From NCBI GenBank assembly GCA_002812745.2, contig NCSJ02000616.1:1-13558 (forward strand): a stretch of DNA of 13,558 nt, in the 5' to 3' direction. This document shows positions 1 through 13,558 of the stretch, one piece after another. Within the stretch, counting starts at the first letter, position 1. Each line of letters starts with the position of its first letter. The stretch is from Scytalidium lignicola (lineage: Eukaryota; Ascomycota; Leotiomycetes). A program made the translations under genes and the position numbers. Under the pieces are notes generated by a model, which saw only the letters and a program-made list of their open reading frames with translations, did no database searches and was not told the origin of the DNA.

Positions 1-321
1 ATAAGGTAAGTCTAGTCACTCTTACAAGGTTTATATAGAAGTAAGATGTTTATAATTATAATAAACAAGTATATATAATAAAGTTATAACTTAAGTTAAA
101 CATAAGGTTCTTAACTAAAGCTTAAAGAATGTATTCTTATATAAACAATTAATATTACTCTATATACAAGTATTCTACTTAGTCTAACAAGTTTAACAGT
201 TAAACTTGTAAACCTTGTAAACTTACGTTAATCATATGACTTAACCCTTTGTTTAGTCTTGATCTTTTATAAGCTGTTATTCTAGTACTTATCAGGTTAT
301 GATAATAAAAGCTATAACATT

Positions 322-575
322 ATGATTAACTTTAAGAGTAACATGAATTTATTAAGAATTTATATTATAGTCAAGTTAATAAGATATCCAATTAAGATAA
401 TTAATAAAATAATATTAGAAGAAGTTATAATACTTAAGATTAAATTATATATTATAATTATAAAAGGTTATAAAGAAATAATCAAGTTTGATATTATTAA
501 TATTAGAAAATACAATATAATCTTAAGATTAGTATAAATGAAGAATTATAATCTTAAAGTAAATTAAATTACTTA
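322..575 (+). pseudogene. Ty3/gypsy retropepsin (aspartic protease) C-terminal remnant
   Basis: A 71-codon open stretch ends in FDIINIRKYNIILRLV, followed after a stop by MKNYN. This matches the end of gypsy retropepsins, where an FDIxxIGKYDIILG block is followed by a PW pair and a basic/asparagine stretch. The changes fit RIP: Gly to Arg in the ILG motif, and the expected Trp codon is now TAA. The catalytic D-T/S-G lies upstream and is not recognisable. Position before the reverse transcriptase agrees with gypsy gene order. It should not be annotated as an independent small gene. Confidence 0.6.
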
Positions 576-769
576 TGAAATCAGATTTACNAAAATGTTA
601 ACATAGTAAAATGAATAGTTTAAAACTTATGAAGATGTATAATATTATAATAAGTAGTATTAAAAACTCAAGGAGAACTTTAACTTTATACTTTTAAATA
701 CTAGAATAATATAAAGGGTTTGAGAAATTGTTTATAAAACAGTTTAAAGATATAACATTATCAGAATAT

Positions 770-1500
770 TATGAATAAGATTATAAAATACTATTAAAAG
801 AAAGATTTAAATTACCTTTCAAATTTATATATTCTACTAACTTAATATAAGATGAAATTACTAAAGAGTAACTAGATAAGATAATAATAAAAGGATTTAT
901 AAGAGAATTACAATTATTATACAAAATGCTTTTAATATTTATACTAAAGTTAAAGGACTCTTAAAGAAAGCCTTGTGAAGATTACAAAGGAATCAACATA
1001 AGAATAATGTTAAATCAATACTTATTACCTTTAATATCAGTTATAAGAGATAAGTTAATAAGAGTTATAATCTTTACTAAGTTAAACTTTTAAACAAGTT
1101 TTAATTTAATCAGGATAAAAGAAGGTAAAGAATAAAAAACAATTATATAAACAAAGTACAAATTGTTCAAGAACTTAGTTATATTATTTAAGCTTACTAA
1201 TACACTAGTTATTATACAAATAGTCAATAACAAGATTATTAAAGAATTTTTAGACAAATTTATAATAGTATATTTAAACAACATTTTAATATACTTAAAG
1301 ATTNAAAAAAGAATATAAAGGATATGTTAAGCAAGTTTTGAAAACACTATTTAAGGAAAGAATACATTGTAAACTGACTAAGTACAAGTTTCATGTTAAA
1401 GAAGTTAAGTTCTTAGAGGAAATCATCATTATTACTAGATTTAAGATAAATCTAGAAAAAATTCAAGTAATTAAGGATTAAGTTATACTAAAGAACATTA
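770..1500 (+). pseudogene. Ty3/gypsy reverse transcriptase, RIP-inactivated
   Basis: In one main frame, with stops, family blocks appear in order: LPFKFIYS and KGFIRE (about 815-905), CEDYKGIN (about 974-997, family CVDYRGLN), YLLPLIS followed by FTKLNF (about 1018-1090), NLIRIKEGKE then a stop where the family has Trp (about 1108-1134), and VYLNNILIYLK (1268-1300). The last is the catalytic motif: the family has YLDD and here both Asp codons have become AAC, so the two metal-binding aspartates are lost by G-to-A change. The connection block FHVKEVKFLE follows near 1390-1420. The enzyme copied the element's RNA into DNA; this copy cannot work. Confidence 0.85.
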
Positions 1501-2053
1501 AGGACATATAATTATTTTTAAGATTAACAAACTATTACAAATGGTATATAAAAGATTATATGATAATCACAAGACTACTAACATCTTTAACTAAGAAGGA
1601 CAAGTTATTTGTTTAAAACAAGAAAAGATNAAAAGGCTTTTGAAGATTAGATCTTAGTACAACNTTAAACTNAAAAAAACTATTTCAAATNAAAAACAAA
1701 CATGTTAGACTATGTACTTAAAACAATGCTTAGTTAATAAGATAACAAAATAAAATGAAGACTAATAATGTTTTATTTTAAAAAGTTCATTCTAGTTAAA
1801 TTGAATTATAAAATATATAACAAGGAATTATTAATAATTGTAAACTCATTTAAGAAATAGCAAGTTTACCTTATAAAGGCTAAACATAAAATNAAAAGTT
1901 TTAACAAATCATAAGAATTTAGTCTATTTTACCATAACAAAAGAGTTGAACAAATAATAAGTAAGATAAGTAAAATTATTAACAAATTACAATTTTTATA
2001 TTCATTATATCAAGGGTTCTAAGAATACCAAGGTGGATACTCTTAGTAGAAAA
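1500..2053 (+). pseudogene. Ty3/gypsy RNase H domain remnant
   Basis: The connection and RNase H part of pol follows the reverse transcriptase. Visible blocks are FLRLTNYYKWYIKDY (about 1515-1560; family FLGFANYYRRFIKDF), LTSLTKKDKLFV then a stop for Trp (about 1580-1616), YKIYNKELLIIVNSFKK (about 1807-1857, containing the YxxxxKELLAIV block of this domain) and NHKNLVYF (about 1907-1932). The domain closes with DTLSRK at 2036-2053, the usual end of RNase H before integrase. Several single N bases in this stretch stand beside A runs, so small frame jumps may be sequencing artefacts rather than mutations. Confidence 0.8.
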
Positions 2054-2349
2054 CTAGAATTCATAAGAAACAATATATATAAATCAAAGGCTATCCTAAA
2101 GNAAAAAAGGCTAAGACTTAGTATTTTGATATATACAAGTTAATAAAATATTATAGTTAGTAAACAAAGAATAACTTAAGAAAATCCAGAAAGTAATTAA
2201 GGNAAAAAGACTAGAAGAAAAATGAAGAATTATATAATAACCTTTTTACAAGCTATTATAACAAGAGAAGAAGTTAAGAGTAAGAATTCTACAATTTTAA
2301 TACTTAGATTTATAACAAAAGACTAGTTATATTAAATACTTTTAAAATG

Positions 2350-2560
2350 TAGAATATTTGCTATATATATATAGATAAATTCTTATTATAATAACTTGTA
2401 AAATCCGAAATAATTACTAAACAACATTTAAATGATTTTTAAACAATTTTTAAATATATTATAAATCATAACTATTTATAATACTTGATTTCAAATTATA
2501 ATATTACTTTGTTGTTGAGTTATTAATTAAATTGTTAGATTTGTAAAGTAAAACAAAATG
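2350..2560 (+). pseudogene. Integrase zinc-binding (HHCC) region remnant of the gypsy element
   Basis: Reading + with stops gives YIYIDKFLL, then LVKSEIITKQHLNDF, and later SYxLNCxIC followed by KVKQND. This resembles the gypsy integrase N-terminal zinc domain, in which an H-rich block (xHHDxPLAGHFG) precedes NYYWPxM and a C-x2-C pair. One His and the C-x2-C are visible; the second His is lost. No DDE catalytic core follows, because the proposed LTR starts about 100 bases later. The assignment depends on its place after RNase H as much as on the weak match. Confidence 0.5.
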
Positions 2561-2656
2561 ACAGAATTTTAAGGTATAACATTACAAATCAAACTGATAA
2601 GAGATAAGAAATCAAGTTATTCTTATTTAAGATTAGTTTGTATTATATAATATATT

Positions 2657-2827
2657 TGTTAACAAAAACTAAACTAATTTAGGTTTAGTGTAATCATGTG
2701 ATATACTATTCGAATAATTATTCGAATATTCAAATATTATTTGATTTGATTTGAATAGTACGTTTTTATGATTTGATTTAAGTTGAATAGTAGTTTATAT
2801 TCAAATCAAATCAAATCAATTCTAACA
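2657..2827 (+). repeat. Candidate 3' LTR of the gypsy element, with palindromic ATTCGA-type repeats
   Basis: The stretch begins TGTTA and ends TAACA, the short inverted ends typical of LTRs. The 2827 end is well supported because host gene sequence resumes next to it; the 2657 start is a guess. Inside are a perfect 20-bp palindrome, ATTCGAATAATTATTCGAAT (2708-2727), and two opposed arrays of a TTTGA/TCAAA unit (2740-2760 and 2799-2820) that are inverted copies of each other. The arrays look like RIP-converted TTCGA repeats. Confidence 0.5.
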
Positions 2828-2832
2828 CTGAT
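2828..2832. other. Candidate 5-bp target-site duplication of the gypsy element
   Basis: CTGAT follows directly after the LTR terminus CTAACA and is still part of the broken transporter's reading frame. Five-base duplications are usual for Ty3/gypsy. The partner copy would lie left of the 5' LTR, outside the window, so this is unconfirmed. Confidence 0.4.
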
Positions 2833-2900
2833 TGTTAGTGAGAAAGACAGTACCTCCAAGTATTTGTGTTAACTGTATAAGAGATATACTAGTTAAGATA
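2828..2900 (-). pseudogene. Displaced 3' fragment of the DHA2 transporter, caught between two transposons
   Basis: Read on the minus strand from the pogo end, these 73 bases continue the frame interrupted at 4891. The codon GAT before the insertion is followed across the junction by ATC, giving ILTSISLIQLTQILGGTVFL. DHA2 transporters have the same layout after the DKKD motif: a PTG(T/I)SL segment, then QxLGGxxFL in the next membrane helix. The Leu where the family has Pro is a C-to-T type change. The frame is cut at 2828 by the gypsy LTR, so the remaining C terminus lies left of the window or is lost. It joins to 4891-6327 if the pogo element and one TA are removed. Confidence 0.75.
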
Positions 2901-2944
2901 CTGAAGAATCTCATATTTAAGATCCGTAGAGTTAACTATATCTG
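2901..2944 (+). repeat. Left terminal inverted repeat of the pogo element
   Basis: It starts CTGAAGAATCTCATATTTAA and matches the reverse complement of 4847-4890 at 38 of 44 positions. All six differences are transitions; five have T or A here against C or G in the right copy, as expected if the left end suffered more RIP. Confidence 0.9.
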
Positions 2945-3034
2945 TTGTTAACCAAGTAAGCTAATGGTGATTAACTCCTTATATAGTTTAACTAAAACAA
3001 GGATCTTGAACACCTGAATCTTTGAATTATGGAT

Positions 3035-4783
3035 TCAATTACTAGTACAAGCTGAGTAGTTTACAATTATTACATCTTCTTCCTTTAATATCACTTCTTC
3101 CATATTATCTACAACTTTAAGGACCTCTTTGAATAGCTTATTTTTGATATATTCAATATCAAAANTCAATAGATTCCTAACTTGTAAAGTTAATTATTAT
3201 ATCTAGGATATCTTTAACCTTGATTTAATTGTCCTTACATTTATCTAGTTATATACTAATTCTACATTGTATAAAAGATTGTTGTACTATTTCCTTTTTC
3301 TCTTAATCTAATTATTAAGTTGCTTTTATAATAATATAAGTAATTATAATTCACTTGTCAAAAGTAATCCATTTAAAATCAAGGTACTCAAATTCTATAA
3401 ATTCTATATATTGATTATTCTTTTCTTTAAGTTATTGTTTGAACAGATTATTTACAATTATATCAAGTGATTATAATAAGCTTGTATAATTAAGAGGAAT
3501 AAGAGTTATAATAATATTAGCTGATTTAAGGTGATTAAAAATAAGATTTGTCTTATAGAATATAATTATATCTATAATTAACAATATATTATTTTGATTT
3601 ATTACAAGAATAAGTTCTTCATCAATCCATTATATAAACAATTCCTTATTATTATATATTGTAAAGTTAAATTCAACTATAACTTTAGAATAATACAAAT
3701 GTTTTTNCCTTTACATATATTTACCTTGAAAGCTTTATAATACTATAAAATATGATCTTTAACTTGATTTACTGAATTTCATCTACAAAGATATACAATA
3801 TTAATGTTGTTTAATGCTTATTCTACTTACTTTAGTCTGTATACCTTAAAACAATTTTAAAGCTTGTTATATCATATGAATAACTATTAAAGTACTTAAA
3901 AGGAATAGAAGTCTTATCCATATTAAGGATTTTAACTTTAAGGAATTAATATAAAGGTGAAGTAACAAAGGTAATATTTAAAGATAAAGAAGGTAATTAA
4001 TTGTTAGGATTAATCACTTTTGCTAGTTAAGAATTCCTTTTAATAAATTAAAGGAAACTATTAATGTAAGTAATATATTCTGAAGGAAGCTTAATAACCT
4101 GCTTTGTAATTCAATATCTAAAAAGGTTATATTACTTTTAAAACTTATAAAACCATCCTTAAGAGAATATAAACAGTGTTATATATTCAGGATTTTGATT
4201 TTTAAATATATTCTTAACTGTACAACATATCCATCTAACAGTTATTATTTGACTAGCCTTCTGATATGTCAGAATTTGCTTAAATAACTCCTTTTCTAAC
4301 TTTAGCTAATAAAGTAAGTAATTAAACTCCTTATTAACTAAAATCTTTTCTTTTTACAACTATCACTTTTTNAATTGTACTATATACAATTTTCTAGAAT
4401 TCAAAGGCTTCTTTTATAATTACTGATCGATATTTGATAGTCAAATTAGAATCTATTGGTTTTAGCTTTAATAACATGCCAAATCGAGCTTTATACTTTT
4501 GGTATATTACAAAAGGTATAACAATAACCTTATAATAAAGGAGGAATTTCAGAACTTCAATTTTACATTCTCTAGTATAAGATCGACATGCTGAAATGAT
4601 TGGCTTGATTTTAAGTGTATAAGTGTACTTTTCTAATAACTTGATTTTAGGGCCCTTTTTAAGGCGCTGTGGCCATTGAGCATTAGCTGATCGTTCTTGA
4701 AGAGCTATAATTGATTGATTAGCTGACACGACACGAGAAAAACAACAAAATCCATGGGAAAGAGAGCATAACAATAATTCCAT
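3035..4783 (-). pseudogene. pogo-type transposase (CENP-B-like DNA binding plus DDE_1 nuclease), RIP-inactivated
   Basis: Minus-strand reading, with stops, follows fungal pogo transposases. An N-terminal block RSYTRECKIEVLKFLLYYKV (about 4585-4526) leads to EAFEF, a stop at the expected Trp, then KIVYSTI, the family's helix-turn-helix start (about 4408-4373). The CENP-B-type block FIFSxGWFYKF lies near 4180-4150, followed by KRNS (about 4030) and NMDKTSIPF (about 3925-3900, family NMDETPI). The nuclease core shows FVDEIQ near 3790, WIDEELI near 3620, LLIIDI near 3575 and IPLNYTSLL then SLD near 3500-3465 (family TSLLQPLD). A SFIQC block follows near 3275. The first Met is uncertain: the open frame reaches back to 4849, the only plausible ATG is near 4783, and the protein-like part begins near residue GPKIK. 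Confidence 0.82.
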
Positions 4784-4846
4784 ATAGTAGTATTGGTGGC
4801 TGACAGCTATACCATATACAGGGTTATTTGCCGAAGTGGTGAGATT

Positions 4847-4890
4847 CAAATGTGGTTAGCTCTACGGATCCTAAATATGAGATTCTTCGG
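4847..4890 (-). repeat. Right terminal inverted repeat of the pogo element
   Basis: Read on the minus strand it starts CCGAAGAATCTCATATTTAG and pairs with the left repeat over 44 bp. It abuts the TA at 4891-4892 that belongs to the interrupted transporter codon. The first bases of the outside gene, GACAAAAAGGA, immediately precede TA on the minus strand. Confidence 0.9.
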
Positions 4891-6327
4891 TATCCTTTTT
4901 GTCAAGGACTGTTTGAACTGCGACAACGGATTGCTGCAAACCAAGGCCGAGGCTGAACCCGACAAGGACTTGGTATCCAATCCACTTCTCGTGATTAGTT
5001 GCGGTAGTAAATGTGGTGAGAAGACCACTACCGATAGACAAGAGAACCACACAGAGATACATAAATGGTGTATAGTACCCTAAGCGTGAAACAAAAGTTC
5101 CAGCAATAATGGTGCCAATAACCAGTCCCAGCATTAGTGGAGCAACCATTGTGCCGGATTTCATAGCACTAGCACCTTTTACTGCCTGGAATCAGAGAGG
5201 TAGGTAATATATAGACGCCATCATTGGTCCAGAAATGCTGAAGGTGAAGAAGAAACCAGCGGAGACGTTTCGATTCTTGAGTAATCGCAGTGGTACCGTA
5301 GAATTTTCTTTCATCCCTCTTTCGATTATCACAAATACAATAAAAGGAATTCTGAAAAGAACAAACAGAACGATTATCCGAGCGTTGGACCATGGGTATG
5401 CAGTTCCTCCCCATTCTAAAGCTAGGAGCAGGCAAATGATACTTGCAAACACACATGTTCCACCCAAGGGATCCAACTGACTCAAGCGACCTCGGGCAGT
5501 TTTGGCCGCGCTTGGATGTAGCGGAGGTGACGGTTTGAGGATGAATAAAACGATTAAAATAGTCACGGCTCCAATTGGTAGGTTGATATAAAAACACCAT
5601 CTCCAGGAGACATGATAAGTCAAAGAGCCTCCCATCAAAGGAGCAACCACAGAAGCTATGCCAAACATAGCCATGAGAAATCCCATGTATACGGGACGCT
5701 GGCTCAAGGGCACGTTGGTGGTTATAATTACCACAGCACCAGAGGCTAACCCAGCGGTTCCCATACCAGAGATAGCTCTGCCGATGATGAAACTTGTTGA
5801 GCTTGGGGCAGCACCGCAAACGGCTGAACCAAGTTCAAATATCACCAGAGCCATGAGGTAGACCCATTTCGAAGAGTAGAAGGTATAGATACGACCGAAA
5901 GTCAAGAGGAATGTAGCGCTGGTTAATAGAAATGCCGTCCCGTACCAACCGATGTCGTCAATTTTCTTAAATGTATTTGTGATGCGTGGAATGGCCGTCG
6001 CAATAATGGTTCGGTCCTGGATCGCTGATTAGCATTTTTTTCAACTTCAAACCAATCCCGGTCTAATTTGTGGACAAATGCATACTAATGAAACAAGAAA
6101 CATTGTGAGATACAAAGCTGCGGTGATACTCGCAAGAGCCCACGGCCTTGGATAGACATGCTCATCTGTTGGGGGCTCGGATTCTGTACGCATCGTCTTC
6201 TCTTCCTGAGTTTTGCTGTACTGGCCATCACAGGGTTTTCTTGTGGTGTATTCTGGTTGTTACTCTTTCGCCCAAATGGGTTCAACGTCTTCGGTTGCTT
6301 TGAAGCCAGCTGAGTGTCTGGATGCAT
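4891..6327 (-). pseudogene. DHA2-family MFS drug/toxin efflux transporter, 5' and central part, broken
   Basis: Two exons resemble fungal 14-helix DHA2 proton antiporters that export toxins and drugs across the plasma membrane. Exon 1 (to 6086) encodes a cytoplasmic tail and helix 1 (YLTMFLVSL). Intron 6017-6085 has GTATGC, GCTAAT branch and CAG. Exon 2 opens DRTIIATAIPRIT and carries LTFGRIYTFYSSKW, the motif C region GIASVVAPLMGG and the hallmark SWRWCFYINLPIG. An in-frame TGA (5192-5194) stands where the family has Trp after YYLPL. Beyond it the frame runs on (FQAVKGASA to VLDKKD) until the pogo element at 4891. The start is doubtful: ATG 6191-6193 is in frame with exon 1, but ATG 6325-6327 gives a plausible longer tail if one A was lost from the A4 run at 6211-6214. 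About 420 residues remain here of an expected 530-580. The continuation is at 2828-2900. Confidence 0.88.
6017..6085 (-). other. Intron of the DHA2 transporter gene
   Basis: A 69-nt intron starting GTATGC and ending CCAG, with GCTAAT as branch-site candidate 16 nt before the acceptor. Splicing joins MFLVSL to DRTIIATAIP, the unbroken helix 1 sequence of the family; reading through gives stops. Confidence 0.88.
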
Positions 6328-7182: not shown

Positions 7183-8286
7183 ATGTATGATCCAAAACCT
7201 GGAGATAGGCTGGAAAGCCTCGATACTCCTTCAATGGTGGTTGATCTCGATATTATGGAGGACAATATCCGTAAGCTCATAGGCTTACTGGAACCGACAG
7301 GCGTTAATATCCGGCCGCATCTCAAGACAACAAAGAGTCCCATCCTTGCCAAAAAGCTGGTCGAGGCAGGTGCCAAAGGAGGGTGTGTGGCAAAGCTCAG
7401 TGAAGCGGAGGTCATGGCCGCTAATGGCTTTGACGATCTTTTAATCACTTGCGAAATTGTTGGATCTGTGAAGGCTGCTCGGCTTGTGGAACTATTCCGT
7501 AGTCACCCAAATATCAAAATCGTTGTTGATAGCGAGCTAGGAGCCACGGCCATAAATGATGCCTTGGTTTCCTCTGGTATTAAGCATCCAATCCAAGTTC
7601 TAATTGATCTGGACGTCGGCTTGCACCGGACAGGCATTGCGCCAGAGTCGGCTCTTACCCTGGCCAGACACATTGCCACTCTTAAGCATTTGAAGCTCAT
7701 CGGCGTGCAGGGTTACGAAGGCCATCTCCAACACGTACATGACCGTACAGCGCGAGAAAAGGAATGCCGAGCTTCCATGGCTATCCTTACTCACACGGCT
7801 AACATGCTACGGGAAAATGGATTTGACATACAGGTTGTCACCACCGGCGGAACTGGTACAGCTGAATTCTGCGCAACTACTCCTGGCGTTACCGAAGTAC
7901 AGCCAGGCTCTTTTATATTTATGGATACCGACTACCGTAACGCAGTAGGAACATTTTTCTCAAATAGTCTTACCATTCTTTCTACCGTCATTAGCAAATC
8001 TGAATCGGAACGTCGCGTTACAATAGATGCTGGCTTGAAGGCCCTTACCACTGATAGTGGATTTGCTGAACCCAAAAACTTGCCTGGCATCACCTACACG
8101 CCTATGGGCGATGAGCACGGCCGATTGAGTTGGGAAGGCGAGTCTAGCCTCTTTGTCGGTACTCGTGTTCAGATGATTCCGAGCCATATCGATCCAACAG
8201 TCAACCTCCATGATTTCTACTACGCTTACCGCAAAGGTGTTATTGAAGAGATCTGGCCTGTTGCTAGCAGAGGAAAGGTGCAGTAG
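7183..8286 (+). CDS. D-threonine aldolase-type PLP enzyme (alanine racemase N-terminal fold), 367 aa
   Basis: The intact, intronless gene encodes a fold-type III PLP enzyme of the D-threonine aldolase / D-serine dehydratase-like group, which cleaves beta-hydroxy-D-amino acids to glycine and an aldehyde. LDTPSMVVDLDIMEDNI opens the barrel. RPHLKTTK holds the putative PLP lysine, K48; bacterial relatives usually have KTHK here. Further marks are DLDVGLHRTG, GYEGHLQH, the phosphate loop VVTTGGTGT, QPGSFIFMD, DAGLKALTTDSG and GDEHGRL. Near the C terminus PSHIDPTVNLHDFYY supplies H335 and D337. His-x-Asp is the metal pair known in D-threonine aldolases, whereas D-serine dehydratases have His-x-Cys, so aldolase is favoured. 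The start at 7183 fits family length and has A at -3; the frame is open back to 7036 but holds no earlier ATG. No targeting signal is seen, so the enzyme is probably cytosolic. 3-Hydroxy-D-aspartate or other hydroxy-amino-acid substrates are equally possible. Confidence 0.92.
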   Translation: MYDPKPGDRLESLDTPSMVVDLDIMEDNIRKLIGLLEPTGVNIRPHLKTTKSPILAKKLVEAGAKGGCVAKLSEAEVMAANGFDDLLITCEIVGSVKAARLVELFRSHPNIKIVVDSELGATAINDALVSSGIKHPIQVLIDLDVGLHRTGIAPESALTLARHIATLKHLKLIGVQGYEGHLQHVHDRTAREKECRASMAILTHTANMLRENGFDIQVVTTGGTGTAEFCATTPGVTEVQPGSFIFMDTDYRNAVGTFFSNSLTILSTVISKSESERRVTIDAGLKALTTDSGFAEPKNLPGITYTPMGDEHGRLSWEGESSLFVGTRVQMIPSHIDPTVNLHDFYYAYRKGVIEEIWPVASRGKVQ

Positions 8287-8706: not shown

Positions 8707-10430
8707 TCACGCCACAAACCGGCTACGCGCTCTCAACTGCGCACCCCGAAAATAGAGCCCGTAGATCCCCCCCGCAGCAGAGCACCGTCAAGCCGCCTAG
8801 CAAGCTGACAGCACCATCAACGCCTAAACTCTTGAACATAGGCCGCGCGTACAGGATCGCACCGGCAGCGAACATACTACGTGCGAAACCATTAGCAGCA
8901 AACAGTGAGCCAGAATACCGCGGGTAGGTAAATGGGAGATAGAGGAACATGGACTGAGTAATGATAAAGACGCCAAACATGCTTGTAGCAACGCCCACAA
9001 GCGAAGGAAACCAGTGAATACCGGCTCTAGCTGTCCATGCTTTTATCACCAAAATGTCAGTCATTGATATTTCAAATGCAGCTAACGTTATTTAAAGTCC
9101 AGAAAAGACGCCTGGAGTGGGGAAAGGTTCGTACCGAAAATAAACAGCCCAATAGGAATGAAGAATGTTGCAATTAGACCCGGCCAGAGACGCGCCTCTG
9201 GAGGGACACCTTCAGGCCCTGAGTGTGCAAACTTGGCATCAGCCACAAAGTAGAAGTACGAACAATACAGCATGACAGCGATAACAAGGCCAACCAATAC
9301 AGCTAAAAATGCTAAACCAATCTCGCCAAGTGAGAATCCATATATGCCACCGTAAACGATAGGAAATGATTCGAAGAACGAGTAGTAGATACCGTAGATC
9401 AAGGCCGTGTAGACTGTAGAGAATAGTACGGCAGGATCGAGAATATTGATCTGCCAAGGTTTGACCAGAGCATCTCGGGCAACGTCTCCAACCCTCATAT
9501 GTGATTGACGGGTCTCGGATTCGGCCTTGAGATTTGTACGACCTGTCAGGACCCTTAGTCGTTTGGCTCGGTAAAGTAATATGAAATCAGATGAAGTTTC
9601 TGGTAGAGTCATGAACATCAAGATGAAAGCAATGCCTGATAGCCATAAAAGCTCCCAGGAACTCCATCGCCATCCCATTAATTGGACAGCAAAGCCTCCA
9701 ATTAGCGGACCAAGTGCCTGGTGCTCATTGTTAGTTGATCGGATCTCGGGCTCCATATCTGATACGAAAATACATAGAAATCATGACTTACTGGTGCTAA
9801 AGTTGCACCACCACCCCATAAAGCAATCACATATGGCATCTGGTTGGCGCTGAAGAAGTCTCCATAGCTAGCTCCCCCAGTAGCTAATGCAGGTGAGCCG
9901 AAGCAACCCAGCAAGAGCCGCAGAATAAGCAAACCAGCAAGAGAATTAACGAGGCACAATGGAATGCAACATATAAAGAACAAGAAGAAGGTGATAATAT
10001 ATGGAAGGTTACGTCCGATACTAGGAATTTCCGAGAGAGGCGACAGAATCATGGGAGCTGCCCCATAACCGAGGACATAAAGCGATAGCCCAAGAGATCC
10101 AACCTCGTTTGTGACATGAAAGACTTCGACAATACCCGGTATGCTTACTACATAGAGTGATGACCCGATGTAGATTGTGAAAGTATATAACAGAATAACG
10201 AAGGAAACCCAACCCTTCTTCAATGGGGACCAGTTGTGAGGATTGTCTGGATCGTCCGCTGAGTACCATGTGACAAGAATACTTCGGTCTTCTTCACAGG
10301 AATGACTATTCGATTTGTAGGCATCAGGTATCTTAAATTGTGGTTGGTGTTCGGAAAAGGCAGCCCATCGATTTCGGGTCAAGTATCGAAGACAGTAGCC
10401 GACAGGGGAGTCGCGAATGAGATCCAACAT
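8707..10430 (-). CDS. DHA1-family MFS multidrug/polyamine transporter, three exons, C-terminal frameshift
   Basis: Exons 10430-9792, 9717-9135 and 9039-8707 encode about 517 residues resembling fungal 12-helix DHA1 plasma-membrane antiporters of the FLU1/polyamine-exporter type. The start MLDLIRDSPVGYCLRY matches the family N terminus and has A at -3; an upstream in-frame ATG at 10511 gives an unlike leader. DPDNPHNW (residues 60-67) is the family signature before helix 1. GYGAAPMILSPLSEIPSIGR (121-140) is the loop 2-3 motif, and ALAPALGPLIGG, assembled across intron 1, is motif C of helix 5. GWRWSSWELLW, LPETSSD and the late FTYPRYSGSLFAANGFARS block follow. A run of seven C (8767-8773) shifts the frame: taken literally the protein stops at 8723 (512 aa), while with six C it continues GGIYGLYF to a basic tail and stops at 8707 as the family does. 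All helices precede or include this point, so function may survive. Confidence 0.9.
8767..8773 (-). other. C7 homopolymer frameshift near the DHA1 transporter C terminus
   Basis: Seven C on the + strand give TGCGGGGGGGATC on the coding strand. Six would read CGGIYGLYFRGAQLRARSRF and stop at 8707-8709, in agreement with the family. It is either a sequencing length error or a late frameshift. Confidence 0.75.
9040..9134 (-). other. Intron 2 of the DHA1 transporter gene
   Basis: A 95-nt phase-1 intron, GTACGA to AAAG, with branch candidate ATGACTGACA. Splicing gives GLFIFAWTAR, the family sequence; without it the frame stops soon after. Confidence 0.88.
9718..9791 (-). other. Intron 1 of the DHA1 transporter gene
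   Basis: A 74-nt phase-0 intron, GTAAGT to CAG, with branch CAACTAACAA. Splicing joins GATLAP to ALGPLIGG and completes motif C. Confidence 0.93.
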
Positions 10431-10779
10431 AATCCTATCTAAAATATTCTTGATAGAGAAGAATTCAAAATAACAGTGAAATTGAAGTTTCACTTTTGAT
10501 CCAGGACTCATGCTCCATCTATAAATTTAAGTTTAATGATGTCCTTTGGTAATAGGACAGCTCACTTCTCCTCTGATAGTAATGCTTAGTCCTTATTTGC
10601 TGTTATCCCTGTCCCGGCGCAAAGCTAGCCTAATGAGGAAAGGAGCTAGATATGATTCTGAGAGCAACGCTAAACTTCATCCTCTGTGTTGATTTTCGCT
10701 AGCATGATCAATTATGGAGCCGATGCAAGTAAACGAGCGGTTTTAGGCTATGTATCATTTACGTCGTGAATCTGGGTGC
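10431..10779. promoter_or_regulatory. Intergenic region upstream of the DHA1 transporter, downstream of the Zn2Cys6 gene
   Basis: About 350 bp between two genes on the same strand. They must hold the transporter promoter and the 3' end of the regulator gene. No defined operator, TATA box or paired CGG site stands out. Confidence 0.4.
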
Positions 10780-12764
10780 CTAATCACTAGTGGATCTCGC
10801 GTTCGGGGGCTCGAGAAGCATTCCCGCCCAGATGAGAACATGACCTTCTGCGATATACTGAAACGGGATACTTATCTTGGGCTAGCAATTGATATCATTG
10901 GTATTTATTGGGATTTAGGAGTAGGGCTGGTAAAACTTACATCTGCTAACAACAAGGCTTGTTGAATACCCAAATTCAATCCGATCCACTTGAGCCATTC
11001 TCGCATACACGTACATATTTCGGACGGAATGATGGAGGAGATACTGACCACCCATAACGGATGCAGCAGAAACAACCCCCCAACTGGCTTGCCGAATTGC
11101 GAAGGTTCCTTAGGACCTCTTGTTTGCTGAGTGTAAGTAGGTAAAGAGGTTTGCAGGTGAAAGGGAATGGATGCAGCGATCTCGTCTGCTAATCTCTTTG
11201 CTTTCAATTCCAAGTATGTAGTCTGGCCATTTCCTAGCCATCTCATACACCTGTATATAACGTCAAGTGCTAATAGATGTGTCTTGCGGTAGGTATTCCA
11301 GACCGCCGCAACGTATACTGTATGATTAGAAATCAGGATAGAGTAGAGTTGTAAGCTCATCAAAAGACTTACAATCGAAATAAGTATCAATATTTCTATT
11401 ACCATGAAACATGAATTCTATGGATGGCATTGGATATTCACTAACTGTCACTGGGAGCCACTCTTGAGGCTGATTTATTGCCCATTCTGCAAACTCCTTG
11501 TCCAGCTCCATTGCCTTCTCCATTATATGTATGATGTCTTGATTCGAAGCCTCGGATGTGTCTGATAGCAGATCATTTGCCGTATAAAAAATAGGATTGA
11601 AATTTATCAAGATAGTATCTAGATTTTGGACGGAAGTATTTGATATTGGGGCACAAAGTACCCTTGCTGTATTCTTCTGCTATGAGGTGTAAGTGGATAT
11701 ATCGAAGCCCACCATCATCTACGCAACAAACCTGAAGAGGTTCTTTGAGTATGAGAGGATTGCTTAACTGGAACAGCTGCATACCACCCAATAGATCGAA
11801 TGGAGAACCTTTACTGGATAAAATTGCAGACACACCTCTAGCATGGGTAACGTGTTCACCAATGTTTTCTTTTGTGCAGGTTAGGATCTAGACCCTGTTA
11901 GTCGTAGTATTCAATATTTCATTAAAGACAGACCTCATAAAGGCCTAGCAAGACAGCAGTAATTAATGACTCGACAGTATTTGCAGTGGCTGTGACTGAA
12001 AGTGTCATCCGGAATGAGTGCAGCAGATTACTATAAGCCTGTTTCGTCTTTTGCAGAAGGCCGTCTCTACGGTACCTGTTTCCTATACCTGCTAGTGCAA
12101 CGATCCGGGCTGCTTGTGCAACATCGGCTGATTGAGCCATCAGTAGTGTCAACCCGTCTAGGAATCCCCGGGACACTGATCTATCTCTTGACTCGACACA
12201 ATAGTCTGCTGAAAAAATCTCGAGAGCAATATACTCTAGTTGATTATCACTTAAGCATTGATAAGCCGCATTTGATCTCACCAAATTTTCTGACTCAATC
12301 GGGCTCGAATATGCCGTGTGAGTCAAGTGATATACTCCATTTCCCTCTGTTGGAGGACCATAATGCCGAAATACTAAAGAATCGCTTTCTTCCTCGTAGC
12401 CCAGGCATTCTATACTTAATCTGACGCACTGGTTGCAAGACTTTGAAGGATAATGTTAGAGATATTGCTAAAAGGTTGAACTTCCTAATAAAACATCGAG
12501 AAATTAAAGAGATTTCTTGCATTCTTGGAAGCTGGAAGAACAAAAGCTTACCGGGCGACCCATATCACACTAGATTCGTATGAGATTAGCATTGATTCCT
12601 AAAAGTAACTGTTTAATTCACTTTCTAAAATTACATGGAAACTAGAGTCTAAAGCAGGGGAGATATTACAGCATAACGACAAAAAATCAAAGCATTCGGA
12701 TACTTGCCCTCTTCTTCCTCGCTTTACACGTCCTACAAGCTTGCGAAACTCCGTAGTTGACCAT
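10780..12764 (-). CDS. Zn2Cys6 fungal transcription factor, seven exons, 506 aa
   Basis: Exons 12764-12708, 12569-12552, 12440-11934, 11887-11732, 11676-11373, 11317-10941 and 10881-10780 join in frame without stops. The N terminus MVNYGVSQACRTCKARKKR joins CDMGRP and SCNQCVRLSIEC to give six Cys (10, 13, 20, 27, 30, 37) spaced C-x2-C-x6-C-x6-C-x2-C-x6-C, a perfect zinc binuclear cluster built from three exons. The C-terminal part, with VSAILSSKGSPFDLLGG, VAAVWNTYRKTHLL, LADEIAASIPFHL and GKPVGGLFLLHPLWV, is the fungal-specific regulatory domain of this class. It is a nuclear DNA-binding regulator, probably of nearby genes. Start 12762-12764 has G at -3. The last exon (IPFQYIAEGHVLIWAGMLL) looks like a genuine C terminus but its acceptor is weak; without that splice the protein ends at 10905. 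No lesion is seen, unlike the two transporters. Confidence 0.88.
10882..10940 (-). other. Intron 6 of the Zn2Cys6 gene
   Basis: A 59-nt intron with a consensus GTAAGT donor after LLLAD. The acceptor GCTAG (or AAG six bases later, same frame) lacks a clear branch site. Use is inferred from the 34-codon in-frame continuation. Confidence 0.6.
11318..11372 (-). other. Intron 5 of the Zn2Cys6 gene
   Basis: A 55-nt phase-1 intron, GTAAGT to ACAG with branch TTTCTAATC. It gives TYFDLYVAAVWNTYRKTH, continuous with the family pattern. Confidence 0.88.
11677..11731 (-). other. Intron 4 of the Zn2Cys6 gene
   Basis: A 55-nt phase-0 intron, GTTTGT to GCAG. It joins LILKEPLQ to KNTARVLCAPISNTS; without it the frame is wrong for the rest of the domain. 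Confidence 0.82.
11888..11933 (-). other. Intron 3 of the Zn2Cys6 gene (46 nt)
   Basis: GTCTGT to CTAG with branch CGACTAACA. It joins LLGLYE to ILTCTKENIGEHVTHARG, and is among the shortest practical fungal introns. Confidence 0.75.
12441..12551 (-). other. Intron 2 of the Zn2Cys6 gene
   Basis: A 111-nt intron, GTAAGC to CAAAG, with branch TCTCTAACATT 19 nt before the acceptor. Reading through meets TAA and TAG stops. Confidence 0.8.
12552..12569 (-). other. 18-nt microexon encoding CDMGRP of the zinc cluster
   Basis: Six codons between TCTAG and GTAAGC supply the third Cys and the conserved Asp/Pro of the zinc cluster. Both flanking introns are phase 0. Skipping it would keep the frame but remove one zinc ligand. 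Confidence 0.75.
12570..12707 (-). other. Probable GC-AG intron 1 of the Zn2Cys6 gene
   Basis: A 138-nt intron opening AGG|GCAAGT and ending TCTAG. The donor is GC rather than GT but otherwise matches consensus perfectly, as GC donors usually do. No GT donor nearby keeps the third Cys of the zinc cluster in frame and spacing. Confidence 0.75.
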
Positions 12765-13125
12765 CCTGATGGAGCAACATTTATGTTAACTGTTTATGTT
12801 TATCGGTACACCTGTAAGCATGTAGTACAGTACGTATCCATACGTGATATACTAGTTGTGCTTCTTATTCAGGTTGTTATCTACTAGGAGGTGGGAGCGT
12901 TGCGAAGGCTGTAAGAGCTTAGCCTCGCTGCTATTACCTAAATGAGACTAGTCTGTAAACGCACGTGTTCATCACGTGACTAAGCTAGTTGAAGAGCAAT
13001 ATTCTACGTAAGGGGGTGAACAAAATGAACCGCGCACCTTAGCGAGGCGGTGAAGCCAATATATTGCCGCTTTTATAAACACGCATTGTTTACTTTATCC
13101 TTCTTTATTATTTACTACTATTTTA
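12765..13125. promoter_or_regulatory. Intergenic region with regulator promoter and left end of a Tc1-like element
   Basis: About 360 bp without a gene. It must hold the promoter of the Zn2Cys6 gene (leftward) and the left end of the transposon that follows. Visible structure is a 14-bp inverted repeat ACGTATCCATACGT (12832-12845), a stem pair GCGAAGGCT / AGCCTCGC (about 12901-12929), and two CACGTG boxes (12962-12967, 12973-12978). The transposon's left terminus is probably near 13010-13017 (TACGTAAGGGGGTG), but the partner repeat is outside the window. Confidence 0.4.
12962..12978. promoter_or_regulatory. Paired CACGTG E-boxes
   Basis: Two perfect CACGTG palindromes lie 11 bp apart start to start, about one helical turn, so bound proteins would face the same side. 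CACGTG is the core site for bHLH regulators in fungi. They lie about 200 bp upstream of the Zn2Cys6 start codon and about 150 bp upstream of the transposase ATG. Confidence 0.35.
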
Positions 13126-13558
13126 ATGGCTTGGGATACTCCTACCCGTGTTCGTTATAAAACCAAAATAGAAGATGACTATTCTAAACGTCAAGCAGCT
13201 CGAAATTTACAAGTCCCTAAATCAACAACTCGAGAGTGGCTCCAAAAGGGAGATCGTGTACAGAAATCAACTGGCCGACCGAAAAGCATTCCTGATTCTA
13301 CAGTCCTTGCAATTATCCACTGGTTTACTGGCCATTATGAACGACGAATTTTTTCTCCTAAACAAATCAAAAAGCAATTTAATTTAAGGGTGTCTAGACT
13401 TACAATTTTAAGAGCTCTAACACGATTTGGATATCATTACCATGTCCCTGATTGCAAGCCTGGAACCTCTGCAAAGAATAGATTATTACAATGGACTTTT
13501 TGCATTGCAAACTAGGATCGACCACTTTGGTATTGGAGGAATAGGATATATACAGATG
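13010..13558 (+). mobile_element. Tc1/mariner-like DNA transposon, 5' part, cut by the window end
   Basis: The transposase reading that starts at 13126 and its short leader mark the left part of a Tc1-type element. The left boundary is a guess (a TA near 13016-13017); no inverted repeat can be checked because the right end is missing. Base composition is much less AT-skewed than in the left-hand elements, so this copy is younger or escaped most RIP. Confidence 0.6.
13126..13558 (+). pseudogene. Tc1/mariner-like transposase N-terminal half, one nonsense codon, partial
   Basis: The protein opens MAWDTPTRVRYKTKIEDDYS, the typical start of fungal Tc1-type transposases. Residues about 15-55 form the first helix-turn-helix (RQAARNLQVPKSTTREWLQK). 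A linker with GRPKS acts like an AT-hook/GRPR region, and a second helix-turn-helix (FSPKQIKKQFNLRVSRLTILRAL) ends before GYHYHVP. After WTFCIAN a TAG (13513-13515) stands where relatives have Trp, then the frame continues DRPLWYWRNRIYTD, ending at the first Asp of the DDE/D catalytic triad as the window stops. TGG to TAG is a RIP-type change. The enzyme would cut and paste its own element; this copy is probably inactive, though the rest is not visible. Confidence 0.85.

What the first reader, a model, noticed from the sequence alone, without database searches (positions are those of the whole stretch)
2828..4892. One transporter gene split by two different transposons, with its lost segment recovered between them
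The DHA2 transporter frame stops at 4891 after the DKKD motif. Excising 2901-4890 plus one TA makes the frame continue at 2900 on the minus strand into a QLTQxLGGTVFL helix, as the family does. That segment is itself cut at 2828 by the gypsy LTR. Standard annotation would miss the 73-bp fragment and call the gene simply truncated.
Basis: partly seen in the sequence, partly recalled or inferred. Interest (0 to 1): 0.75.

Follow-up and report, generated by a model that had tools for sequence, protein, structure and literature searches.

The report
Fungal transporter pseudogene broken by transposons
In the mould Scytalidium lignicola, a gene for a drug-efflux-type pump has been cut by two DNA transposons, and a 70-base scrap of it survives, heavily mutated, between them; this is a neat but ordinary example of gene decay in a fungal genome.

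Summary
The window is a whole 13,558-bp draft contig of Scytalidium lignicola. The core of the finding holds. A minus-strand DHA2-type efflux-transporter gene (exons 6086-6193 and 4893-6016) is interrupted by a 1,990-bp TA-flanked Tc1/mariner element of pogo/Fot1 type (2901-4890). The bases beyond it encode, in the expected strand, register and phase, the next transporter helix (best of 25,554 window segments by 32 bits; one genome match). Three corrections follow. (1) The far boundary is not a gypsy LTR. The gypsy remnant ends about 490 bp further left, at a unique join with truncated hAT DNA. (2) The gene carries an in-frame TGA at 5192-5194, where 116 of 119 homologues have Trp. (3) The frame stops at 4871-4873, inside the transposon, where the public gene model also ends. 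The trapped 70 bp shows RIP-type decay; the adjoining gene hardly does. The missing C-terminus was not found. Ordinary pseudogene; low novelty.

The parts
6086..6193 (-). DHA2-type transporter gene, exon 1 (36 codons)
   Evidence: Start and splice site as in deposited model P0003; translated alone, with the 69-bp GT..AG intron 6017-6085
4893..6016 (-). Transporter exon 2, broken off at the TA site 4891-4892; MFS_1/TRI12 profile matches
   Evidence: Pfam MFS_1 3.8e-32, TRI12 3.6e-15 on the part upstream of the TGA; 67% identity to a Xylogone protein
5192..5194 (-). In-frame TGA; 116 of 119 homologues have Trp and 3 Tyr in this column
2901..4890 (.). Tc1/mariner-superfamily element (pogo/Fot1 type), degraded, TIRs CTGAAGAATCTC.. 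/ ..GAGATTCTTCGG, TA at 2899-2900 and 4891-4892
   Evidence: 51 matches in own genome (itself and TIR cross-matches included), near full-length relatives 73-89% identical; TA flanks in 11 of 13 copies compared; relatives encode DDE_1 + HTH_Tnp_Tc5
2831..2900 (-). Surviving 70-bp host fragment of the transporter gene (the segment directly after DKKD), single match in the genome, C-to-T type decay
2336..2830 (.). Terminal 495 bp of a hAT DNA transposon (end ..CTAACACTG; not an LTR); 96-97% identical to eight other places
2831..2838 (.). Predicted 8-bp hAT target duplication (ATTGTTAG); the other copy was not found
   Evidence: 8-bp duplication seen at the relative in L050; no exact left junction in the pattern search
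348..2342 (+). RIP-degraded Ty3/gypsy remnant (RNase H profile; YLDD-like motif read by eye), cut off before the integrase; 7-bp overlap with the hAT end at 2336-2342
1..323 (.). Another repeat family, running off the contig end
   Evidence: 12 near full-length matches of about 320 bp elsewhere, 84-88% identical; a lower bound, 40 of 325 candidates were scored

Best explanation
This is a dead DHA2-type efflux-transporter gene. A pogo/Fot1-type Tc1/mariner element inserted at a TA directly after the DKKD segment. A hAT transposon inserted 70 bp further along the gene. Repeat-induced point mutation (RIP) then degraded both transposons and leaked into the 70 bp trapped between them, but hardly into the gene body on the other side. 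A later deletion or rearrangement joined the truncated hAT end to a gypsy remnant, and the rest of the gene was not found in the assembly. Shown: the two element ends, the TA sites, the homology, register and single match of the 70 bp, the internal TGA, and the hAT identity of the second element. Inferred: the order of insertions, RIP as the cause of the decay, and deletion as the cause of the 2336 join.
For: Copies and TA flanks of 2901-4890; DDE_1 and HTH_Tnp_Tc5 in two relatives scanned. hAT end: 14 of 16 loci inspected end in AACACTG or AATACTG, the next base varies, and a 151-bp relative in L050 has CAGTGTTGG...CCAACACTG inside a perfect 8-bp duplication. Inward-reading frames in a copy, one of which matches the stretch upstream of a Dimer_Tnp_hAT match at 54% over 48 residues, E 2e-11 in a search of that 2.4-kb locus. 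The 70-bp piece continues the homologues in register and has one genome match. Decay: 6 of 23 residues occur in none of 119 homologues, against 9 of 375 columns in the gene piece P0001 (p 7e-5; one of the nine is the TGA itself, without it 8 of 374, p 4e-5) and 0 of its last 55 columns before the transposon. Dinucleotide indices of the 73 bp, 1.83 and 0.67, pass RIP reference values (>0.89, <1.03; quoted in PMC4188875, passages seen); gene stretch 5195-6013 gives 0.72 and 1.26.
Against: The last residues of the fragment (T-N-N) fit the family poorly, and one of the six unseen residues is not explained by C-to-T/G-to-A change. The CAG codon at 2828-2830, which the hAT reading assigns to the transposon, happens to encode the commonest homologue residue (Q in 89 of 119). 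The second hAT target duplication was not found. The RIP indices of the fragment rest on few dinucleotides, and 4893-5194 passes one of the two indices. GC of the 70 bp (30%) is not outside the range of 70-bp stretches of exon 2 (28.6-61.4%). The assembly comes from about 200-bp fragment-library Ion Torrent reads (PMC6256649, whole text), so joins through repeats are less certain.
Confidence: 0.88

Rival explanations
1. The contig is a chimera: the 70 bp and the transporter body come from different loci and were joined through a repeat by the short-read assembler.
For: Reads of 140-260 bp from a fragment library, MIRA assembly (PMC6256649, whole text); 12 N positions, all in 1-4372; the gypsy/hAT join at 2336-2342 is spanned by 0 of 15 other matches.
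Against: The nearest other copy of the 1,990-bp element is 89% identical, so 200-bp reads can tell them apart. The 70 bp is the next part of the same protein family, on the right strand and in the right phase at the TA site, which a random join would not give. The 70 bp has no other match in the genome. The chimera case is strongest for the 2336 join, which the main claim does not need.
Confidence: 0.07
2. One reading: the fragment is cut by a gypsy LTR at 2828 with a CTGAT duplication.
For: A Ty3/gypsy remnant does lie to the left (RT_RNaseH E 8e-8).
Against: The gypsy homology ends at 2342 in 9 of 10 gypsy matches that reach the join and at 2345 in the tenth, and two copies fetched past that point continue into integrase-like sequence. 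The unit that touches the fragment is hAT. CTG is shared by all nine close copies and so is not target DNA.
Confidence: 0.02
3. The decay of the fragment is plain neutral pseudogene drift, not RIP.
For: The fragment is non-coding once separated; only 6 unusual residues and few dinucleotides are available.
Against: The gene body is dead too (internal TGA), yet shows 9 unusual columns of 375, the TGA included. 5 of 6 changes in the fragment are explainable by C-to-T/G-to-A and 0 by the reverse, against 2 and 3 of 9 in the gene body (p 0.04; with the TGA left out 5 of 6 against 1 of 8, p 0.03).
Confidence: 0.2

Closest known systems
DHA2 (14-TM) drug:H+ antiporter family / TRI12-type fungal efflux pumps
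   Same: MFS_1 and TRI12 Pfam matches; PDB relatives EfpA and EmrB (that these are DHA2 pumps is recalled); 67% identity to a Xylogone sp. protein
   Different: Broken copy: internal TGA, two transposons, no C-terminus found
pogo/Fot1-type Tc1/mariner elements of fungi
   Same: TA duplication, TIRs, about 2 kb, relatives with DDE_1 and HTH_Tnp_Tc5; TA sites, DDE and HTH_Tnp_Tc5 are described for Sclerotinia Tc1/mariner elements (PMC4188875, passages)
   Different: RIP-like indices in this copy (1.10 and 0.99), unlike the Sclerotinia elements in that paper
hAT DNA transposons
   Same: CAGTG..CACTG ends, 8-bp duplication in a relative, transposase remnants
   Different: The window copy is only one terminal 495 bp; the rest is not there
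RIP leakage into single-copy DNA, as in Cladosporium fulvum (PMC9453070, abstract and passages)
   Same: RIP-type decay of single-copy DNA in a genome with RIP-affected repeats
   Different: Here seen in 70 bp caught between two repeats, with little effect beyond the outer edge of the Tc1/mariner element

Membership tests
Tc1/mariner superfamily, pogo/Fot1 type | TA target duplication | tested here: met
   TA at 2899-2900 and 4891-4892; 11 of 13 copies compared have TA on both sides, one lacks its left end at a contig edge, one lacks terminal bases
Tc1/mariner superfamily, pogo/Fot1 type | Terminal inverted repeats | tested here: met
   Arms 2897-2965 / 4826-4894, 77% complementary
Tc1/mariner superfamily, pogo/Fot1 type | DDE_1 transposase with Tc5/CENP-B-type HTH | tested here: met
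   Met in the two relatives scanned, L011 and L016 (DDE_1 5.6e-15 and 3e-12; HTH_Tnp_Tc5); the one frame of the window copy that was scanned gave no match
hAT superfamily | Short TIR of CAGNG...CNCTG kind (recalled) with 8-bp target duplication | tested here: met
   L050: gtttcaac-CAGTGTTGG...CCAACACTG-gtttcaac. The duplication of the window copy could not be seen
hAT superfamily | hAT transposase | tested here: met
   An 82-aa frame in a copy matches upstream of a Dimer_Tnp_hAT match at 54%, E 2e-11; Pfam scans of this piece and of a second short frame gave nothing
Ty3/gypsy LTR at 2827/2828 (reader) | The terminal unit is an LTR flanking the gypsy element | tested here: not met
   Gypsy homology stops at 2342-2345; other copies of 2336-2830 are preceded by DNA that does not match the window's gypsy part
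DHA2 drug:H+ antiporter | MFS_1/TRI12 profile and closest solved relatives in DHA2 | tested here: met
DHA2 drug:H+ antiporter | 14 transmembrane helices, transport activity | not testable with these tools
   Gene broken and incomplete; pieces not joined
[quoted passage not shown]
   1-2827: 1.21 and 0.70; 2828-2900: 1.83 and 0.67; 2901-4890: 1.10 and 0.99; also 12600-13558: 1.17 and 0.97. Not met in 5195-6013 (0.72 and 1.26); 4893-5194 passes only the first (1.00 and 1.17)

The most novel reading that the evidence does not exclude
RIP leakage is bounded by repeat edges in this fungus: single-copy DNA caught between two repeats is mutated over its whole length, while DNA just outside the last repeat is spared. 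A 70-bp host fragment of known ancestry would then be a natural gauge of how far leakage reaches.
Probability: 0.3. Interest if true: 0.35.

Novelty: new member of a known kind. Interest (0 to 1): 0.2.

Why it matters
Mostly as a worked example. Short host fragments between transposons are missed by gene finders, and here the deposited model even skips an internal stop with an improbable intron and ends inside a transposon. It also gives a local contrast between trapped and flanking DNA that could be used to measure RIP leakage.

Tried and rejected
Missing C-terminus: a search of the own genome with the C-terminal 110 residues of the Xylogone homologue gave 34 matches, the highest identity 44%. 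In 33 of 34 the match starts at query residue 1-11, so it already contains the segment that our gene keeps in the 70 bp and cannot be the lost remainder. The one late-starting match (C310, from residue 21) turned out to be another transporter with an intron, whose upstream part lies next to it. Left hAT junction: a pattern of predicted duplication plus TIR, up to 2 mismatches, gave 122 sites against 84 for the reversed control, so it has little power; the list is not complete but runs from the fewest mismatches and begins at one, so no exact match was found. Three sites were fetched (C465, C330, C358), and no homologue C-terminus matches any of them at E 0.01. LTR reading: considered first, dropped when copies showed a shared CTG and hAT ends. 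Pfam gave nothing for two short hAT frames, and a PDB search of one of them gave only matches at E 0.18 and worse. One reading frame of the RT stretch matched a Ty5 Gag model weakly (E 0.016); this was not used. Papers: no paper held both Scytalidium lignicola and 'transposable element'; two broader searches of RIP and gene disruption showed no account of this locus in the 10 of 100 and 10 of 18 papers listed (listings only).
Full report
Source. The window is the whole of contig C573 (13,558 bp) of a 46.85-Mb, 664-contig genome. The transporter's closest database entry is B7463_g12558, partial, Scytalidium lignicola, on a 13,558-bp contig. The genome paper (PMC6256649, whole text read; [quoted passage not shown] Because of that, and because some relatives are named efflux or antibiotic-resistance pumps, I compared the gene's pieces apart and joined nothing.

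The gene. On the minus strand, exon 1 (6086-6193), a 69-bp GT..AG intron and exon 2 (from 6016) encode an MFS transporter (exon limits): MFS_1 E 3.8e-32 and TRI12 E 3.6e-15. The best matches among solved structures are EfpA and EmrB. The best relative from another fungus is 67% identical, from Xylogone sp.. An in-frame TGA lies at 5192-5194; in the 119 homologues compared (P0004-P0122; 5,612 were found and 120 listed, of which P0003 is this gene itself) the column is W in 116 and Y in 3. The deposited model (326 aa) leaves out about 90 residues around this TGA and ends ...DKKDTEESHI. TEESHI and the stop at 4871-4873 are transposon TIR sequence.

First transposon. 2901-4890 has inverted ends and TA at both sides. 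The genome search gave 51 matches, this copy and cross-matches of the TIRs included, with near full-length relatives of 73-89% identity. Of 13 copies compared at their ends, this one included, 11 have TA on both sides, one runs off a contig and one lacks its first bases. Some relatives keep long open frames, and the two scanned have DDE_1 and HTH_Tnp_Tc5 domains, so this is a Tc1/mariner element of pogo/Fot1 type.

The fragment. Minus strand 2828-2899 translates to ILTSISLIQLTQILGGTVFLTNNQ. I placed the 119 homologues by alignment of the 150 residues up to DKKD and read on without gaps: GG stands at columns 15-16 in 111, Q at column 12 in 112, F at column 19 in 101. Against a profile of those 119 segments the fragment scores +15.1. 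The next best of 25,554 segments of the window, both strands and all frames, scores -17.2, and no segment of a 300-kb first-order Markov sequence with the composition of 1-4890 reaches it (best -12.3). The homologues themselves score 41.8 at the lowest, and 72.2 at the last rank printed, so the fragment is a decayed member. The best single identity is 11 of 23 and the median is 7. It has one match in the genome, itself.

Second transposon. The repeat that touches the fragment matches eight other places at 96-97%. In longer alignments it ends at 2830 or up to three bases beyond in these copies, and CTG at 2828-2830 is present in all nine (this one included), followed by varying bases. Fourteen of 16 loci inspected end in AACACTG or AATACTG. 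In L050 a 151-bp relative reads CAGTGTTGG...CCAACACTG between two copies of gtttcaac, an 8-bp duplication. A longer copy (L039) has inward-reading frames, the first beginning about 520 bp from this end. Another of them matches, at 54% over 48 residues (E 2e-11 within the 2.4-kb locus fetched), the stretch upstream, on the same strand, of a Dimer_Tnp_hAT match. The element is therefore hAT, and host DNA is 2831-2900.

Further left. A gypsy remnant (RT_RNaseH E 8e-8) matches other copies up to 2342 (9 of 10) or 2345 (1 of 10), while the hAT copies begin at 2336 (4 of 5) or at their contig's first base (1 of 5); 0 of these 15 matches span the join. Two gypsy copies fetched past this point continue into integrase-like sequence (zinc-finger motif judged by eye). 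So a truncated gypsy is fused to a truncated hAT with a 7-bp overlap, by deletion or by assembly error. Bases 1-323 are yet another repeat.

Decay. Of 375 comparable columns in P0001 (4 of 379 dropped for too few homologues) 9 hold something seen in no homologue, one of these being the TGA; in the 23-residue fragment it is 6 (Fisher p 7e-5; 4e-5 without the TGA column), and in the last 55 columns before the transposon 0 (p 4e-4). Five of the 6 could come from C-to-T/G-to-A change and none from the reverse, against 2 (one the TGA) and 3 of 9 in the gene piece. RIP indices exceed the usual reference values (as quoted in PMC4188875, passages) in 1-2827, 2828-2900 and 2901-4890 but not in 5195-6013; 4893-5194 passes one of two; the far right end, 12600-13558, passes both. 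GC of 2831-2900 is 30%, but 70-bp stretches of exon 2 go down to 28.6%, so base composition alone does not separate it. RIP leakage into single-copy DNA is reported in Cladosporium fulvum (PMC9453070, abstract and passages).

What is missing. A search with the homologue C-terminus found 34 DHA2-like matches in the genome (highest identity 44%). Thirty-three start at query residue 1-11 and so carry the segment our gene keeps in the 70 bp; the one late-starting match belongs to another gene. No exact left hAT junction was found and three near matches fetched have no transporter C-terminus. The end may be deleted, mutated beyond recognition, or unassembled.

Verdict. A real, well-supported, ordinary transposon-broken pseudogene.

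Noticed in passing
4874-6193: The deposited gene model (P0003, 326 aa) seems to use an extra intron of roughly 270 bp that removes conserved residues and the in-frame TGA, and ends inside the transposon TIR.
   Followed up: partly
2336-2342: A gypsy remnant and a truncated hAT end are fused with a 7-bp overlap; 0 of 15 other genome matches span the join.
   Followed up: partly
L050, about 1441-1591 of the reverse complement: A 151-bp hAT-type miniature element with a perfect 8-bp target duplication (gtttcaac).
   Followed up: no
1-323: A further repeat family with at least 12 near full-length matches elsewhere, cut by the contig end.
   Followed up: no
12992-13558: The right contig end is a transposase-like frame with a weak Tc3-type HTH match, related at 68% to DNA in L037; 12600-13558 passes both RIP indices.
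   Followed up: no
7183-8286: Open D-serine-dehydratase-like frame (Ala_racemase_N + D-ser_dehydrat), 88% identical to its best relative, between the broken transporter and a second MFS gene (about 9091-10526, minus).
   Followed up: no
1-4372: All 12 N positions of the window lie in the AT-rich repeat part, many next to A or T runs, as might be expected of Ion Torrent reads.
   Followed up: no
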